Positions 13,150-46,479 of a DNA stretch of 64,000 bases are shown one piece after another. The stretch's first letter is position 1, and each line of letters begins with the position of its first letter. Both the position numbers and the translations under genes were made by a program. The notes beneath the pieces are model-generated. The model searched no databases, was not told the DNA's origin, and was given only the letters and a program-made list of their open reading frames with translations. This DNA is from Flammeovirga sp. SJP92. Its GTDB lineage: Bacteria; Bacteroidota; Bacteroidia; Cytophagales; Flammeovirgaceae. The stretch covers positions 186,001 to 250,000 of the forward strand of contig NZ_LQAQ01000098.1 in NCBI RefSeq assembly GCF_001583495.1, read 5' to 3'.

Positions 13150-13225
13150 GCGAAAATAGCTCAGCTGGTAGAGCGCAACCTTGCCAAGGTTGAGGTCGCG
13201 GGTTCGAACCCCGTTTTTCGCTCCA
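13150..13225 (+). tRNA. tRNA-Gly (GCC), copy 1
   Basis: Full cloverleaf. Acceptor GCGAAAA pairs with TTTTCGC; anticodon stem CAACC/GGTTG surrounds TTGCCAA (anticodon GCC); the T arm is GGTTCGAACC. The body is 13150-13222 and is followed by a genomically encoded CCA (13223-13225), unlike the other two copies. Confidence 0.97.
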
Positions 13226-13260
13226 TTTAAAACATTTCATTTGTCAGCAATGGTAGATGA

Positions 13261-13344
13261 GCCGGGATGGCGGAACTGGTAGACGCGCAAGACTTAAAAT
13301 CTTGTGAGGGCAACCTCGTGTGGGTTCGATTCCCACTCCTGGTA
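13261..13344 (+). tRNA. tRNA-Leu (TAA), copy 1
   Basis: 84-nt class II tRNA with a long variable arm. The anticodon stem CAAGA/TCTTG encloses CTTAAAA (anticodon TAA), and the T arm contains GGTTCGATTCC. The acceptor GCCGGGA pairs with TCCTGGT through two G-U pairs. No encoded CCA. Confidence 0.97.
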
Positions 13345-13351
13345 CTAAGCT

Positions 13352-13424
13352 GCGAAAATAGCTCAGCTGGTAGAGCGCAACCTTGCCAAGGTTGAGGTCG
13401 CGGGTTCGAACCCCGTTTTTCGCT
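13352..13424 (+). tRNA. tRNA-Gly (GCC), copy 2
   Basis: Identical body to copy 1, starting 7 bases after tRNA-Leu copy 1. No encoded CCA (ends GCT then CTAAG). Confidence 0.97.
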
Positions 13425-13525
13425 CTAAGTGCCAAGTTATTTAAATGGCTAAAGAGATAAGGAAGACTTGACTTCCTTTCAATAAAAACAAGAAAATACT
13501 TTCATTTATCAGCAATGGTAAATGA

Positions 13526-13609
13526 GCCGGGATGGCGGAACTGGTAGACGCGCAAGACTTAAAATCTTGTGAGGGCAACCTCGTGTGGGTTCGATTCCCA
13601 CTCCTGGTA
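13526..13609 (+). tRNA. tRNA-Leu (TAA), copy 2
   Basis: Identical body to Leu copy 1. The preceding bases (catttatcagcaatggtaaa) are nearly the same as before copy 1, so the duplicated unit extends upstream of the tRNA. Confidence 0.97.
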
Positions 13610-13617
13610 CAAAGTAT

Positions 13618-13690
13618 GCGAAAATAGCTCAGCTGGTAGAGCGCAACCTTGCCAAGGTTGAGGTCGCGGGTTCGAACCCCGTTTTTCGCT
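13618..13690 (+). tRNA. tRNA-Gly (GCC), copy 3
   Basis: Third identical tRNA-Gly body, 8 bases behind Leu copy 2. The array terminator follows 2 bases later. Confidence 0.97.
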
Positions 13691-13692
13691 CT

Positions 13693-19504: not shown

Positions 19505-19549
19505 AACAGGGAAATGTAAATTGTAGAAATAAATAAAAGGGCAAAATAT

Positions 19550-19688
19550 CGTGCACCATGACTAAAGTCATGGGCAAGTGATATTGACTCCATCAACACT
19601 AAAGTGTTGTTTTCGTTTTCAACCTTCAAGACTTTAGTCTTGGTTAGGTTGCTCTATCACTTACCCATAGTTTTAACTATGGTGCACG
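19550..19688. repeat. Four-hairpin inverted-repeat element (REP/MITE-like)
   Basis: The ends are imperfect inverted repeats of about 34 bases: CGTGCACCAT...GGGCAAGTGATA (19550-19583) and TATCACTTACCC...ATGGTGCACG (19655-19688). Within the element four small hairpins follow each other, each with a 2-base core: CCATGACT-AA-AGTCATGG, AACACT-AA-AGTGTT, CAAGACT-TT-AGTCTTG, CCATAGTT-TT-AACTATGG. The whole could fold as one long stem or as four units. No transposase is encoded and no target duplication was found. Confidence 0.75.
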
Positions 19689-19716
19689 AAACACCTAATG
19701 ACTTTATTCCAAATAC

Positions 19717-20706
19717 TTAAATAGATGAATTGACTACCCTCTCAATGAAGTTGAAAAGTCTTGTTTCTACTGGTATTCTAACTGCGTCTCCTGACATAGA
19801 AGTAGCACCTGCTGGATAGAAATGTCCGAACCCTGGCACCCAAGCGAATTCATACTCCACACCTGTTCTCTCATAATGTTGAATCATTAGAGGATTGGCA
19901 ATTCTTGCTCCTGTAAGATCTGTTTGTGCAAGGAACTGAAGAATTGGAGGGTGGTTTTCTCCAGCTTTGATATTATCCAATTCAAAAACTACCGGAGCAC
20001 CTGATAAAAGGAATACCCCTGCTACAGGCTCTTTTAACCCATAAGCAACATTCCAAGAAGTCACTGCACCAGCTGAAAAACCGCCAATAATGATTTTATC
20101 TTGATCTACTGGTAGCTCATCTGCATTGCGCTTTACAAATTGAATAGCAGATTGTAAATCTTCAGCAGCAGCAATAACAGCATCAGATTGTATTTTAATA
20201 TGCTCAGGATTGTTGGGATCTAATGGAGGAAGGTTCATTGCTTTTCTTACTTCAGAAGCTCTATCCAACATTAGTTTGATACCGTCTCTATTCAAAACAG
20301 TATGCTCATCAATACCCTCAAGATGTGGTATGGGAAAGTCGGGAGTTAATCGGTAATCGATAGCAAAACAAACATATCCTTTTTTTGCTAACCTCATACA
20401 GTATTCCTCAGGTGAAGTATCCTGTTGCCCGTCGATTTCATAACGGTCATGTGGAGTGCCTCTTTGAAATGCCCCTCCGTATGTAAAGAATACAGCGGGA
20501 CGTTTTTCATTATTGGTCGTTACAGGCTTGTAAATATTCATCCATAAGTCAACAGATGTAGGTCTTCCGTCTTTCAGAATTAATCCTTTTCCATAGTTGA
20601 CATTTCTTACTACATCAACATCATAGTTTACATTAGCATAAACGACATTAGTTATTGTAAAGATAAAAGAGAATAAAATCGCTGATATATAATAAATTAC
20701 CTTCAT
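19717..20706 (-). CDS. Secreted alpha/beta-hydrolase (esterase/lipase-like)
   Basis: 329 residues with a signal peptide (ISAILFSFIFTITNVVYA). The nucleophile elbow is GGFSAGA (GxSxG), with a GGAF oxyanion-hole motif upstream (FFTYGGAFQRG) and a late catalytic His in the phrase GFGHFYPAG. DLTGARIANP probably carries the acidic residue. This layout fits the carboxylesterase/hormone-sensitive lipase-like branch, but the substrate cannot be told. An AraC regulator lies directly upstream on the same strand and may control it. Confidence 0.82.
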   Translation of the reverse strand: MKVIYYISAILFSFIFTITNVVYANVNYDVDVVRNVNYGKGLILKDGRPTSVDLWMNIYKPVTTNNEKRPAVFFTYGGAFQRGTPHDRYEIDGQQDTSPEEYCMRLAKKGYVCFAIDYRLTPDFPIPHLEGIDEHTVLNRDGIKLMLDRASEVRKAMNLPPLDPNNPEHIKIQSDAVIAAAEDLQSAIQFVKRNADELPVDQDKIIIGGFSAGAVTSWNVAYGLKEPVAGVFLLSGAPVVFELDNIKAGENHPPILQFLAQTDLTGARIANPLMIQHYERTGVEYEFAWVPGFGHFYPAGATSMSGDAVRIPVETRLFNFIERVVNSSI

Positions 20707-41711: not shown

Positions 41712-41978
41712 GGTTGAAAATTTGACCGGATATCGATCTACTATTTTATACTACTTCATTATTTTTATTAGAGTGTTTGTTGTAGCCACTTAGACCTGCT
41801 ACGTGAAGTAAGCATTAATAGTGTAGTGTAACGAGCATTATTCTATTCAAACTCTTTATTCTTAATTCTTCATTCTTCATTTTTTTATCTTAAATTTGTC
41901 CGGTTACTCCAATAATCAACCTGATTTTTCATTGGTGTGGCCAAAAATTAATATAAGATCTTTTTGAGTCACATGGTA

Positions 41979-43253
41979 ATGAAAGAAATTTTGCTCAGTA
42001 AGGTAAGAGTATCAGACCCTACCTCAACCTATCACAAACAAATTGTAAACATCCTTATTAAGGATGGTATCATCAACAAAATTTCCACTGAAAAAATCGA
42101 TGCTTCCAATGCTGAAGTCATTGAAGGAAATGAGAAACTTTACGTTTCATTAGGTTGGTTTGATATGAGAGCAACTCTAAATGAGCCTGGTGAAGAATTC
42201 AAAGAAGATATTGCCTCTTTAGGAAAAGCAGCCGCTTTTGGTGGTTTTACAGACGTAGCCACTCTACCAAACACATCTCCAGTTATCCAATCCAAAGAAA
42301 GCATTCATTTCGTTAAGCAAATGAGCACTTTTTCTCCTGTTCAAATCCACCCAATGGGTGCTTTGACAAAAGATTGTAAAGGAGAAGAGATGAATGAGGT
42401 GAAAGATATGCACGATGCCGGTGCTGTAGCGTTTACAGATGGCGTAAAATCATCTTGGCATCTTGGGGTTATCAAAAGAGCCTTGATGTACATGCAATTG
42501 TTTGATGGTTTGATGATCGAAAAAGCAGATGAGAAAACGCTGAACAACGATGGTCATATGAATGAAGGTATTCCATCTACATTGATGGGAACAAGAGGTA
42601 TTCCAAATGTAGCGGAATGGTTAGCCATTCAAAAAATCATCTCATTGTTGACTTACACAGACGGTAGAGTACACTTTGCTAATATCTCAACACCTGAGTC
42701 AGTAGACATCATCCGTAAAGCAAAAGCAGAAGGATTAAAAGTAACATGTGATATTGCTGCTCACCAAGTAGCATTCACCGATGAAGATTTAGCCTCTTTT
42801 GATACTAACCTAAAAGTAAATCCTCCATTCCGATCTCAAAAAGATATTGACGCACTTTGGGAAGGAATCAAAGACGGAACAATTGATGCCATTGTTTCTT
42901 CACATACACCTCAAGATACAGAGTCAAAGCGTTTAGAATTTGATTTAGCAGACTTTGGTATCATCGGTTTAGAAACAGCTTTCGCATCTATCGTTTCTAA
43001 CTTACCAAAAGAGATTGATGTAGATACGATTATTGAGAAATTGACAACAAATCCTCGTCAAATCTTGAAGGTAGAACAAGAACCAATCGCTGAAGGTAGC
43101 AAAGCAGTACTTACAGTTTTTGATCCTGAAGCTACATGGACATTTGCTGAAAGCGATATCCAATCAAAATCAAATAATACACCATTCGTAGGAAAAGAAT
43201 TAAAAGGTAAAGCAGTAGCGATTGTCAATAAAGGGCAATTGGTGAAGGCTTAG
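41979..43253 (+). CDS. Dihydroorotase homologue lacking metal ligands
   Basis: 424 residues with the amidohydrolase/class I dihydroorotase scaffold (LPNTSP, AFTDG, DLADFGIIGLET). The metal-binding DxHxHxREPG is changed: residues 62-71 read DMRATLNEPG, so both His and the substrate Arg are lost. The TDHAPH motif reads SSHTPQ, losing the catalytic Asp and a His. It is therefore likely inactive as a hydrolase and may be structural or regulatory, as with pseudo-dihydroorotases (PyrC') that assemble with aspartate transcarbamoylase. I chose ATG 41979 (MKEILLSKVRVSD). The last 31 codons are duplicated downstream (43729-43820). Confidence 0.85.
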   Translation: MKEILLSKVRVSDPTSTYHKQIVNILIKDGIINKISTEKIDASNAEVIEGNEKLYVSLGWFDMRATLNEPGEEFKEDIASLGKAAAFGGFTDVATLPNTSPVIQSKESIHFVKQMSTFSPVQIHPMGALTKDCKGEEMNEVKDMHDAGAVAFTDGVKSSWHLGVIKRALMYMQLFDGLMIEKADEKTLNNDGHMNEGIPSTLMGTRGIPNVAEWLAIQKIISLLTYTDGRVHFANISTPESVDIIRKAKAEGLKVTCDIAAHQVAFTDEDLASFDTNLKVNPPFRSQKDIDALWEGIKDGTIDAIVSSHTPQDTESKRLEFDLADFGIIGLETAFASIVSNLPKEIDVDTIIEKLTTNPRQILKVEQEPIAEGSKAVLTVFDPEATWTFAESDIQSKSNNTPFVGKELKGKAVAIVNKGQLVKA

Positions 43254-43320
43254 GACTTTTATTATTATAAATGATGAACACCATCATGAATATCTTTTGG
43301 AGGTATTTGTGGTGGTGTTT
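43162..43320 (+). repeat. Direct repeat, copy A (3' end of dihydroorotase homologue plus terminator)
   Basis: 159 bases covering the last 31 codons, the stop and a hairpin of the dihydroorotase-like gene. It matches copy B (43729-43887) with 7 mismatches and no gaps. It includes the gene's terminator: CACCATCA pairs with TGTGGTGGTG through G-U pairs, then a run of Ts. Confidence 0.9.
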
Positions 43321-43335
43321 TTTTATATTTAAGAA

Positions 43336-43716
43336 ATGAACTTATTATTTGAAAATCTTATGAATAGTTTATTCCCGGTAAAAAGTGAAGCTCAATACGA
43401 CACTTATATAGATAAGTTAGATGAACTAATGGAGGCTGAAACACTTTCTGAAGAGGAAGAGTTAACCTTAGAACATTTATCAATCTTAATAGATGCCTAC
43501 GAACAGGATAATGTAGAAATAAACACATCTAGTTTAAAGCCATTAGATTTGATTAGATTCAAAATGGATCAGATGGGTTTAAAGCAAAAAGACCTTACTT
43601 TTATTGGTAGTTCTGGTGTAATTAGTGAAGTATTGAATGGAAAAAGGCAGTTGAACTTAAAAATGATTAAGACTGTTGCTGAGCATTTGGATATACCAGT
43701 GCAGTTATTGGTTTGA
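43336..43716 (+). CDS. HigA-like antitoxin/HTH protein without toxin
   Basis: 126 residues. The N-terminal 60 are acidic and helical; the rest is an XRE-type helix-turn-helix domain (DLIRFKMDQMGLKQKDLTFIG, SGVISEVLNGKRQLNLKMIKTVAEHLDIPVQLL). The phrase SEVLNGKRxLxLxMI is characteristic of the HigA/COG5499 antitoxin branch. HigA usually follows a HigB toxin gene, but the 82 bases upstream are the end of the dihydroorotase repeat and hold no ORF. The gene lies exactly between two direct repeats, 15 bases behind copy A and 12 before copy B. Confidence 0.85.
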   Translation: MNLLFENLMNSLFPVKSEAQYDTYIDKLDELMEAETLSEEEELTLEHLSILIDAYEQDNVEINTSSLKPLDLIRFKMDQMGLKQKDLTFIGSSGVISEVLNGKRQLNLKMIKTVAEHLDIPVQLLV

Positions 43717-43728
43717 TATTTTACCTCT

Positions 43729-43887
43729 AATCAAAATCAAATAATACACCTTTTGTAGGAAAAGAATTAAAAGGTAAAGCTGTAGCGATTGTCAATAAAG
43801 GGCAATTGGTGAAGGCTTAGGACTTTTTTTATTATAAATGATGAACACCATCATGAATATCTTTTTGAGGTATTTTTGATGGTGTTT
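43729..43887 (+). repeat. Direct repeat, copy B (orphan 3' end of dihydroorotase homologue)
   Basis: Second copy of the 159-bp repeat. The coding part still reads in frame (SKSNNTPFVGKELKGKAVA) to a stop, and its three differences from copy A (CCA to CCT, TTC to TTT, GCA to GCT) are all synonymous. The hairpin is better paired than in A: CACCATCA with TGATGGTG. It ends at the stop codon of the minus-strand gene at 43886, so it may terminate both directions. Confidence 0.9.
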
Positions 43888-44848
43888 AATTTATTAATGG
43901 CTTACCATGAATTGTAATACTGTTTAAAAATGATTTAGATATTCTTTCATATCCTGTAGAATCAGAACTGTAAGGATATGTAGTCATAATAGAAAAGGCA
44001 ATATCACCTCTTCTGATTGAATAATAGTTATATTTAGTTTGTTGGTCTTTCATCACATATATTGAATGTATTCCAAATTGGCTATTAGCTTGAGTTTCTC
44101 TATCTAAATAATAAATTTCTATATTATCGGATGATAAAAAAGTCATAATTTTATCGTCAATATTCCAGTCTTCCTCTCCTAAGCATCTAATACCTAATTG
44201 AAACCCCATATTATATTTATAATACTTGTAATTTTTGAAATCATCATCAGATATTACTTCGTAACCTTCAAAAAGAGATCCTTTCAATCCTTCTTGCATA
44301 CTGATTGTTTGACGGAATAAAACTGAATCAATTTTATATTCCCAGTATTTTTGTTGACTAATGATTAGTCCATGATCTGTTTCCTTATCATACTTTTCTT
44401 GTTCTACTCTTAACTTTGCTCTATGTACCTTAAATGAGTCTATTATTTCACTTTCAGAAAGAGGAAGATCTTTATATAATGCTTCATTTAGATTTCGTGC
44501 AAAAATCTCTGTAATGTTAAAATGATATTGTTCATGCTTTAAAATGTAAGCAGAATTTTCAGAGGTAGTGTCATTTTTATTTAACCATGAAAGTGTCTCA
44601 TTTTGAAATGCTTTTGCATAATATTTATGTTCACTTGTTGAGTCTTCTACAAGTTTTATATCACTAGCTATTGCAGCAGTATATATTGAGAAAGGTTTTG
44701 GAATACCTTGAAAATTAGACCATTCTAGTTGTTTCCAATCATTTATTTTATGAGGCTTATAGAAGTTATTTTCAATTAGTTTAATTGAAAGAATTATCGA
44801 TAATGTAAATACTATAATGCCTATTTTAATTTTTGTAATTGTTGCCAT
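43886..44848 (-). CDS. Membrane-anchored protein with HExxH motif (DUF922-like)
   Basis: 320 residues. One N-terminal membrane helix (residues 8-24, IGIIVFTLSIILSIKLI), then an exported domain. The phrase LKHEQYHFNITEIFARNL contains HExxH (residues about 106-110), a zinc-metalloprotease motif, and matches the HEQGHFDIAE pattern of DUF922-type proteins. A linker and beta-rich C-terminal part follow. The start overlaps the end of the upstream membrane-protein gene by 28 bases, so they are a coupled pair. Proteolytic activity is unproven. Confidence 0.6.
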   Translation of the reverse strand: MATITKIKIGIIVFTLSIILSIKLIENNFYKPHKINDWKQLEWSNFQGIPKPFSIYTAAIASDIKLVEDSTSEHKYYAKAFQNETLSWLNKNDTTSENSAYILKHEQYHFNITEIFARNLNEALYKDLPLSESEIIDSFKVHRAKLRVEQEKYDKETDHGLIISQQKYWEYKIDSVLFRQTISMQEGLKGSLFEGYEVISDDDFKNYKYYKYNMGFQLGIRCLGEEDWNIDDKIMTFLSSDNIEIYYLDRETQANSQFGIHSIYVMKDQQTKYNYYSIRRGDIAFSIMTTYPYSSDSTGYERISKSFLNSITIHGKPLIN

Positions 44849-45501: not shown

Positions 45502-46479
45502 TTAAGAATTCACTTTGATCCTTTCAATTTCCCCCAAAATCGCCTTCAAAACATTAATCGCCACACTATTTCCAAACTGCTTATAAGCTTGATTATGGGC
45601 TGAAGTAATAATAAAATTATCATCAAACCCCTGAATACGGGCACACTCTCTCGGGGAGAGTTTTCTGATTTGATTACCTACTTTATATAAACCCGTTTTG
45701 TCTCCAACACCTCCTCCATAGGCAGATAACGTTATAGCATGACCGATGGGGTCGTAGATACGTTCTCCTTGACCGCCTTTGTTGACTCTTCCGATTTGTA
45801 TGGGGCGATTGGGTAAAATGACGTTTCCTTCTTTATCTTCTTTAGGTTTGTATTTTTTATAAATGTCGATGTCAGGGCGGTTGACAATCTTGGCATCAGG
45901 TTTTTGTTCGAGAAAGTCTTTTAGGCTAACATGTTTTTGATGAGGTAAAGGAAAGTGGAATTCATCGGTGGTGATATCTTTTCGGAAGCAGACAAAGTAA
46001 ATTCGTTTTCTGTTCTGAGGTAAACCAAATTCTGATGCATTCAACACTTTGTATTTTACATTGTACCCTAGCTCATCTAAAGTCTTGATGACTACTTGAA
46101 TGGTATTTCCTCCGTCATGTTTTTCAAAGTTCTTGACGTTTTCTAGAAAGAGTAATTTCGGTTGATGGTGCTTTACAATTCTCGCAATATCAAAAAATAA
46201 AGTACCGCGGGCATCTTCAAATCCTTTTTGTTTGCCTGATACAGAAAAGGCTTGGCAAGGAAAGCCAGCGCAAAGGATATCATGAGTAGGAATCTCTTTT
46301 TCATCAATCTGAGTGATATCACCGTGAGGTTGGATACCATAGTTGCGTTGGTAGGTTTTTACGGCAAATTTATCCCATTCAGAAGCAAAAACACATTCTG
46401 CTCCAAACGATGTCAACGCTTTATGAAAACCACCAATACCAGCAAATAGATCTATAAATTTTAATCCCTCTATCTTCAT
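45502..46479 (-). CDS. DNA (cytosine-5-)-methyltransferase, apparently orphan
   Basis: 325 residues, methylates C5 of cytosine in DNA using SAM. Motif I is DLFAGIGGFHKAL, motif IV GFPCQAFS with the catalytic Cys, motif VI FLENVKN, motif VIII LPQNRKRIYF, motif IX/X RECARIQGF and QFGNSVAINVL. The target recognition region is about 190-270, and its DNA specificity cannot be read from the sequence. No restriction endonuclease gene adjoins; the two genes downstream (membrane protein and HExxH protein) are not known partners. Either a solitary regulator-type methylase or a remnant of a modification system. Confidence 0.93.
   Translation of the reverse strand: MKIEGLKFIDLFAGIGGFHKALTSFGAECVFASEWDKFAVKTYQRNYGIQPHGDITQIDEKEIPTHDILCAGFPCQAFSVSGKQKGFEDARGTLFFDIARIVKHHQPKLLFLENVKNFEKHDGGNTIQVVIKTLDELGYNVKYKVLNASEFGLPQNRKRIYFVCFRKDITTDEFHFPLPHQKHVSLKDFLEQKPDAKIVNRPDIDIYKKYKPKEDKEGNVILPNRPIQIGRVNKGGQGERIYDPIGHAITLSAYGGGVGDKTGLYKVGNQIRKLSPRECARIQGFDDNFIITSAHNQAYKQFGNSVAINVLKAILGEIERIKVNS

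What the first reader, a model, noticed from the sequence alone, without database searches (positions are those of the whole stretch)
43162..43887. Direct 159-bp duplication of a gene's 3' end and terminator around a lone HigA-like gene
The last 31 codons, stop and hairpin of the dihydroorotase homologue occur again behind the HTH gene, at 43162-43320 and 43729-43887, with 7 mismatches and no gaps. The three coding differences are all at third codon positions and synonymous, and both hairpins keep their pairing. This is what one expects if the second copy diverged in a functional gene elsewhere and arrived with the HTH gene, restoring the host gene's 3' end, as integrating elements do. The payload here is one gene and there is no recombinase, so a very small mobile unit or a recombination scar is possible.
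Basis: partly seen in the sequence, partly recalled or inferred. Interest (0 to 1): 0.78.

Follow-up and report, generated by a model that had tools for sequence, protein, structure and literature searches.

The report
Lone antitoxin gene inside duplicated gene end
In one Flammeovirga genome a small gene resembling the antitoxin half of a toxin-antitoxin pair sits behind a housekeeping gene whose last 159 bases are repeated on its far side, most likely the scar of an insertion that duplicated its target, a kind of scar already reported for other selfish bacterial genes.

Summary
The repeat is real: 43162-43320 and 43729-43887 differ at 7 of 159 bases without gaps; the three coding differences are at third codon positions and both hairpins fold well. 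Between them lies a lone HigA-type antitoxin gene with no HigB. None of eight congeners has it behind pyrC. Copy 2, not copy 1, runs into the flank shared with Flammeovirga sp. OC4 and EKP202, so copy 2 looks like the displaced native end.

[quoted passage not shown] aprica. That pattern is published for restriction-modification genes. Comparable scars lie around some HigBA pairs in the order, one with single-copy empty sites. Enrichment is weak: 12 of 120 HigA loci against 17 of 347 control ORFs, p = 0.042; without the window's own case 11 of 119, p = 0.071.

Complication: OC4 and EKP202 carry an inversion (about 80 kb in OC4) with a breakpoint here and a decayed pyrC end at its far side. No congener shows a clean empty site; an older duplication kept alike by gene conversion is not excluded. 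The integrase-like reading is unsupported.

The parts
41964..43253 (+). dihydroorotase-like gene (pyrC family), host gene with intact 3' end
   Evidence: NCBIfam TIGR00857 pyrC_multi 321.7 bits against cut-off 279; found in 9 of 9 genus genomes
43162..43320 (+). copy 1 of the direct repeat: last codons, stop and terminator hairpin of the pyrC-like gene
43276..43320 (+). hairpin 1, with T run behind it, terminator-like
43321..43725 (+). inserted segment of 405 bp holding one gene
   Evidence: segment between the two copies; gene absent behind pyrC in 8 of 8 congeners
43360..43716 (+). lone HigA-type antitoxin/HTH gene (ORF open from 43336), no HigB
   Evidence: PDB HigA match; relatives in the order are mostly HigA of HigBA pairs (105 of 120 loci)
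43729..43887 (+). copy 2 of the direct repeat (pyrC 3' end fragment plus hairpin), probably the displaced native end
43843..43887 (.). hairpin 2, border with the convergent 320-aa gene
   Evidence: similar hairpin with the same flank in EKP202 and OC4
43886..44848 (-). 320-aa gene without a Pfam or NCBIfam match, ending at hairpin 2
   Evidence: orthologous DNA next to a hairpin and decayed pyrC end in G003 and G005

Best explanation
A lone HigA-type antitoxin gene (405-bp insert) entered the gap behind the pyrC terminator and the event left a long direct duplication of the target: the last 31 codons, stop and terminator of pyrC stand on both sides. Shown: the repeat, the lone gene, its absence there in congeners, the continuity of copy 1 with pyrC and of copy 2 with the downstream flank. 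Inferred: that a single event without a dedicated recombinase made it, for example repair of a break by copying the antitoxin gene and returning to the template about 160 bp upstream, or fill-in of a staggered break; and that selection for an intact pyrC explains why the duplicated piece covers the gene's 3' end. The antitoxin may act as a DNA-binding regulator or neutralise related HigB toxins (inferred from the family); without its own toxin it should not addict the cell, so the unit could in principle be deleted by recombination between the repeats.
For: Repeat and pairing. Gene missing behind pyrC in 8 of 8 congeners. Within the 159 bp copy 1 differs from F. aprica's pyrC end at 2 positions and copy 2 at 6 (alignment); fourfold divergence of pyrC between the two genomes is 0.10, so copy 2's changes fit drift since about that split. 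Comparable scars around HigBA in other genomes: L097 (3' end of an Amidohydro_3 gene; congener G413 has one copy whose left side matches the left copy and right side the right copy, and G246 likewise), L131 (terminator behind an aconitase gene; one hairpin found in the five congeners aligned), L125 (last codons of a type I specificity gene, 90%), L016 (3' end of an ORF without Pfam match, 81%, frame kept). A second lone relative, broken by a stop, sits behind the terminator of a Lyase_1 (argH-like) gene in G008.
Against: No congener shows the clean empty junction. OC4 and EKP202 have a decayed pyrC end beside the same 320-aa gene, which could mean that the duplication is older than the HTH gene. 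Enrichment is weak: 12 of 120 against 17 of 347 ORFs, p = 0.042, and 11 of 119, p = 0.071, without the window's own case; against shifted windows 4 of 308 it is stronger (11 of 119, p = 0.0003) but those do not start at gene borders. Seven of the 12 look like dispersed or tandem repeats, and an automatic 3'-end rule gives 2 of 120 against 1 of 300, p = 0.20. In G416, which has the L097 HigBA pair, no right copy was found in the roughly 1.5 kb held behind it. No duplication was found around the G008 relative.
Confidence: 0.55

Rival explanations
1. Older duplication kept alike by gene conversion: the ancestor of this genome, F. aprica, OC4 and EKP202 already had a second pyrC end beside the 320-aa gene; in OC4 and EKP202 an inversion separated the copies and the second decayed, while here conversion kept it near copy 1 and the HTH gene filled or replaced the gap later.
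For: Decayed pyrC end with a similar hairpin beside the 320-aa gene in EKP202 and OC4; the window's order is the ancestral one by comparison with G007 and G008.
Against: The remnant reaches about 70 bp further into pyrC than copy 2 and differs by 17-22% from copy 2 and by 25-36% from the four pyrC ends compared, against 5% between copies 1 and 2; duplication at inversion breakpoints is a separately described process.
Confidence: 0.25
2. Integrating element of classical type: a recombinase acting in trans inserted a small unit at pyrC's 3' end and the unit restored the gene end.
For: Geometry (gene end restored, short fragment left on the far side); all three coding differences synonymous.
Against: No integrase in the insert; in five congeners with held flanks (G001, G003, G004, G005, G006) no second copy of the repeat lies behind pyrC (for G001, G005 and G006 also over 12 kb or more); the flanking repeats of other HigA loci are different sequences, so no constant core.
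Confidence: 0.08
3. Import by homologous recombination of a stretch from an unsampled Flammeovirga that already carried HTH gene plus pyrC end.
For: Tree slightly favours copy 2 outside copy 1 + F. aprica (75% bootstrap); exchange occurs here: the stretch beyond the remnant is 98% identical between OC4 and EKP202 over 4.7 kb although their pyrC genes differ by 10%.
Against: Only moves the origin of the structure to another strain; grouping of both copies not rejected (AU p = 0.14).
Confidence: 0.12

Closest known systems
Insertion with long target duplication (Nobusato et al. 2000, Gene 259:99; only title and citing passages seen), described for restriction-modification genes
   Same: Small gene unit inserted in a chromosome, flanked by long direct copies of the target of variable length (order of 100 bp per a passage of PMC3874152), not tied to a known mobile element.
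   Different: Payload here is a lone antitoxin gene, not a restriction-modification system; a clean empty site is lacking at this locus.
DNA duplication associated with inversion (Furuta et al. 2011, cited in a passage of PMC8963470; paper not held)
   Same: OC4 and EKP202 have a pyrC end at both breakpoints of an inverted stretch, in opposite orientation.
   Different: That event is in other genomes; the window genome has direct copies without inversion.
HigBA type II toxin-antitoxin module
   Same: Protein is homologous to HigA; 105 of 120 related loci have HigB next to HigA.
   Different: No HigB here; the only HigB match in this genome lies elsewhere (G000:C1:22188-22454).

Membership tests
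Insertion with long target duplication | insert flanked by long direct repeats | tested here: met
   162 nt, 95%
Insertion with long target duplication | related genome with a single copy and no insert (empty site) | tested here: inconclusive
   F. aprica: one copy, contig ends 75 bp on; OC4/EKP202 rearranged. Met for the L097 parallel in G413 and G246
Insertion with long target duplication | left copy continuous with left native flank, right copy with right native flank | tested here: met
   copy 1 with pyrC; copy 2 with TAATTTATTAATGGC and the 320-aa gene as in EKP202 and OC4
Site-specific integrative element in a gene 3' end | integrase linked to the insert | tested here: not met
   the 405-bp insert holds only the HTH gene
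Site-specific integrative element in a gene 3' end | constant attachment core in several inserts | tested here: not met
   the repeats around other HigA loci are different sequences
HigBA toxin-antitoxin module | HigA-family antitoxin | tested here: met
   alignment
HigBA toxin-antitoxin module | HigB toxin gene directly upstream | tested here: not met
   15 bp between hairpin 1 and the first ATG, 39 to codon 9; no HigB hit
HigBA toxin-antitoxin module | neutralises a toxin | not testable with these tools
   needs an assay

The most novel reading that the evidence does not exclude
HigA-type antitoxins and HigBA pairs in this order of Bacteroidota move as naked units that insert behind genes and terminators with long target duplications and no recombinase; addiction by the pair keeps the otherwise excisable duplications in place, and lone antitoxins show that the toxin is not needed for the movement.
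Probability: 0.17. Interest if true: 0.65.

Novelty: new member of a known kind. Interest (0 to 1): 0.4.

Why it matters
How small selfish gene units without any recombinase enter chromosomes is still poorly explained. Long target duplications were reported for restriction-modification genes; finding such a scar around an antitoxin gene, with single-copy empty sites for a HigBA parallel, offers a way to ask whether the mode of entry or the stability given by addiction leaves such scars. The lone antitoxin is a useful control because it should not addict.

Tried and rejected
Plasmid search with the DNA of the locus: no match. GTDB contigs and IMG/VR scans with the HTH protein: pattern hits but no relative; the plasmid and phage collections give only matches below 60% identity (199 and 5 records). 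Second pyrC-end copies in the 12-14 kb behind pyrC in G001, G005 and G006: none beyond weak fragments in G001. HTH-gene remains at the G003/G005 junctions: only chance-level matches. L182 as a clean target duplication was dropped: its 48-bp repeat is dispersed in the genome. L106 and L121 hold several copies of their repeat within the locus; L009, L096, L134 and L141 look like dispersed repeats to me, which I did not test; none of these is used as a parallel.

Counting details: 126 HigA loci were at hand; L003 and L018 (the broken G008 gene) were left out beforehand, L015 and L017 gave no HigA hit, and two more fell away, by the script's rule for short flanks, leaving 120. L017 had shown a 225-bp 75% repeat in an earlier scan and is not in the count. 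The window's own locus is one of the 120 and of the 12; one search repeats the test without it. Of the matches five were not fetched (four at contig ends and G035:C8). Control ORFs come from the same neighbourhoods as the HigA loci and may hold mobile genes themselves. Scripts differ in ORF calling (347 and 300 controls). The probability of the novel case was lowered from 0.20 to 0.17 after the recount without the window's own case.

Full report
The observation. One direct repeat of 162 nt joins 43159-43320 and 43726-43887. Both hairpins are strong; only hairpin 1 is found by the terminator scan. The segment between, 43321-43725, holds one gene. Its protein matches solved HigA antitoxin chains (E 1.9e-7); most relatives in the order are the second gene of a HigBA pair (105 of 120 loci). 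Here there is no HigB; the only HigB match in this genome, with the G001 protein as query, lies on another contig.

Which organism. The window is G000:C98:186001-250000. No call names the window genome; by kinship it is a Flammeovirga.

Comparison with relatives. pyrC is found in 9 of 9 genomes of the genus. None of the 8 congeners has the HTH gene behind it: G002, G003, G005 and G007 have no match, and the matches in G001, G004, G006 and G008 lie elsewhere. The gap behind pyrC is variable: F. aprica has other sequence and its contig ends 75 bp after the matched stretch, with SusD-family and TonB-receptor genes next to the methylase on another contig; G001, G002, G006, G007 and G008 also differ. 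Copy 1 is followed by a T run like the pyrC hairpins of G001, G003, G004, G005 and G006 (shortest in G004); copy 2 is followed by TAATTTATTAATGGC, as is the hairpin beside the 320-aa gene in EKP202 and OC4. So copy 1 belongs to pyrC and copy 2 to the downstream side.

The inversion. In OC4, contig C144 runs from pyrC into genes that in the window genome lie on contig C99, and its other end runs backwards along the window's contig from 69.3 kb to 45.0 kb in window coordinates, about 81 kb in all; the last step to the hairpin is on another contig, C191. In EKP202 the same two junctions are seen on two contigs. G007 and G008 have the window's order, so the inversion is derived. At the far breakpoint EKP202 and OC4 carry a hairpin and, before it, a decayed pyrC end of about 236 bp. 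It differs by 25-36% from the four pyrC ends compared and by 8% between the two genomes, whose pyrC genes differ by 28% at fourfold sites; the stretch beyond it is 98% identical between them, so it was probably exchanged between these lineages. The pattern equals the published duplication associated with inversion (passage seen in PMC8963470). It shows that this site broke more than once or that a second pyrC end is old.

Age of copy 2. Within the 159 bp copy 1 differs from F. aprica's pyrC end at 2 positions and copy 2 at 6 (alignment). Fourfold divergence between the two genomes is 16 of 171, 0.10 corrected. Copy 2's changes are thus compatible with drift since about that split. The tree puts copy 2 outside copy 1 + F. 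aprica with 75% bootstrap, but joining both copies is not rejected (AU p = 0.14).

Is it a pattern? I examined 120 HigA loci of the order for direct repeats of at least 40 bp within 500 bp on both sides: 12 have one; shifted windows 4 of 308; ORFs in the same loci 17 of 347, Fisher one-sided p = 0.042. The window's own locus is among them; without it 11 of 119, p = 0.071 against the ORFs and 0.0003 against the shifted windows. Reading the 12: a host-gene 3' end in four (pyrC here; a type I specificity gene in L125; an amidohydrolase in L097; an ORF without Pfam match in L016, frame checked) and a terminator in L131 (aconitase); gene names. The other seven look like dispersed or tandem repeats, shown only for L182, L106 and L121. 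An automatic 3'-end rule accepts 2 of 120 against 1 of 300 controls, p = 0.20, so the 3'-end feature is not statistically shown. L097 is the cleanest: HigBA stands behind the gene in G288, and congeners G413 and G246 have one copy, which in G413 overlaps both flanks by about 70 bp. In G416, which also has the pair, no right copy was found in the 1.5 kb held behind it. For L131 one hairpin was found in each of the five congeners aligned (G130 was not). Type I specificity genes share conserved ends, so L125 could also be a neighbouring gene fragment.

Mechanism. The data fit an insertion that duplicates a long target. Break repair with a return to the template upstream, or fill-in of a staggered break, would do it; both are inferred. 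If the insertion point lies in or near a gene's end, only events whose duplication covers the rest of the gene leave it intact, which explains the 3'-end geometry without an attachment site. Direct repeats allow deletion, so such inserts should be short-lived unless the cargo addicts the cell; the lone antitoxin here should not do that, which makes it an informative exception or a young event.

Comparison with what is known. Insertion with long target duplication was described for restriction-modification genes by Nobusato et al. (title and citing passages seen in PMC3031569, PMC1643837 and PMC3874152; the paper itself not seen). A passage of PMC3874152 says that some restriction-modification systems insert with long and variable target duplications on the order of 100 bp. 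The search 'long target duplication' with 'toxin-antitoxin' lists 5 papers; in three I saw passages (PMC3874152, PMC3031569, and PMC2654758, where the phrase is only in the reference list), two I saw as listing only. A search with 'variable target duplication' and related terms lists 3 papers; no paper holds both 'toxin-antitoxin' and 'Flammeovirga'. I saw no description of it for a toxin-antitoxin or lone antitoxin gene, within this open-access library and these searches (also, listings only).

Verdict.

Noticed in passing
G005:C144/C191 and G003:C142 against window 43841-64000: An inversion of about 80 kb in OC4 with one breakpoint at the pyrC terminator and a decayed inverted copy of the pyrC end at the other side; the adjoining 4.7 kb is 98% identical between two species whose pyrC differ by 10%.
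   Followed up: partly
L018:1498-1924 (G008): A second lone HigA relative, broken by one stop, directly behind the terminator of an argH-like (Lyase_1) gene; again behind a T run.
   Followed up: partly
L121:744-3696 (G078): Four copies of a roughly 160-220 bp repeat alternating with single genes and a HigBA pair, like a cassette array; no integrase was looked for.
   Followed up: no
window 13150-13691: Five tRNA genes in alternation Gly-Leu-Gly-Leu-Gly, apparently a local tandem amplification.
   Followed up: no
window 19514-19720: A 170-209 bp stretch with 83-85% identity to it lies directly upstream of pyrC in EKP202 and F. aprica but not upstream of pyrC in the window, a dispersed repeat.
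   Followed up: no
window 45502-46479: A C5 cytosine DNA methylase (restriction partner not searched for) lies 1.6 kb behind the repeat; relatives of it lie near pyrC in G006.
   Followed up: no
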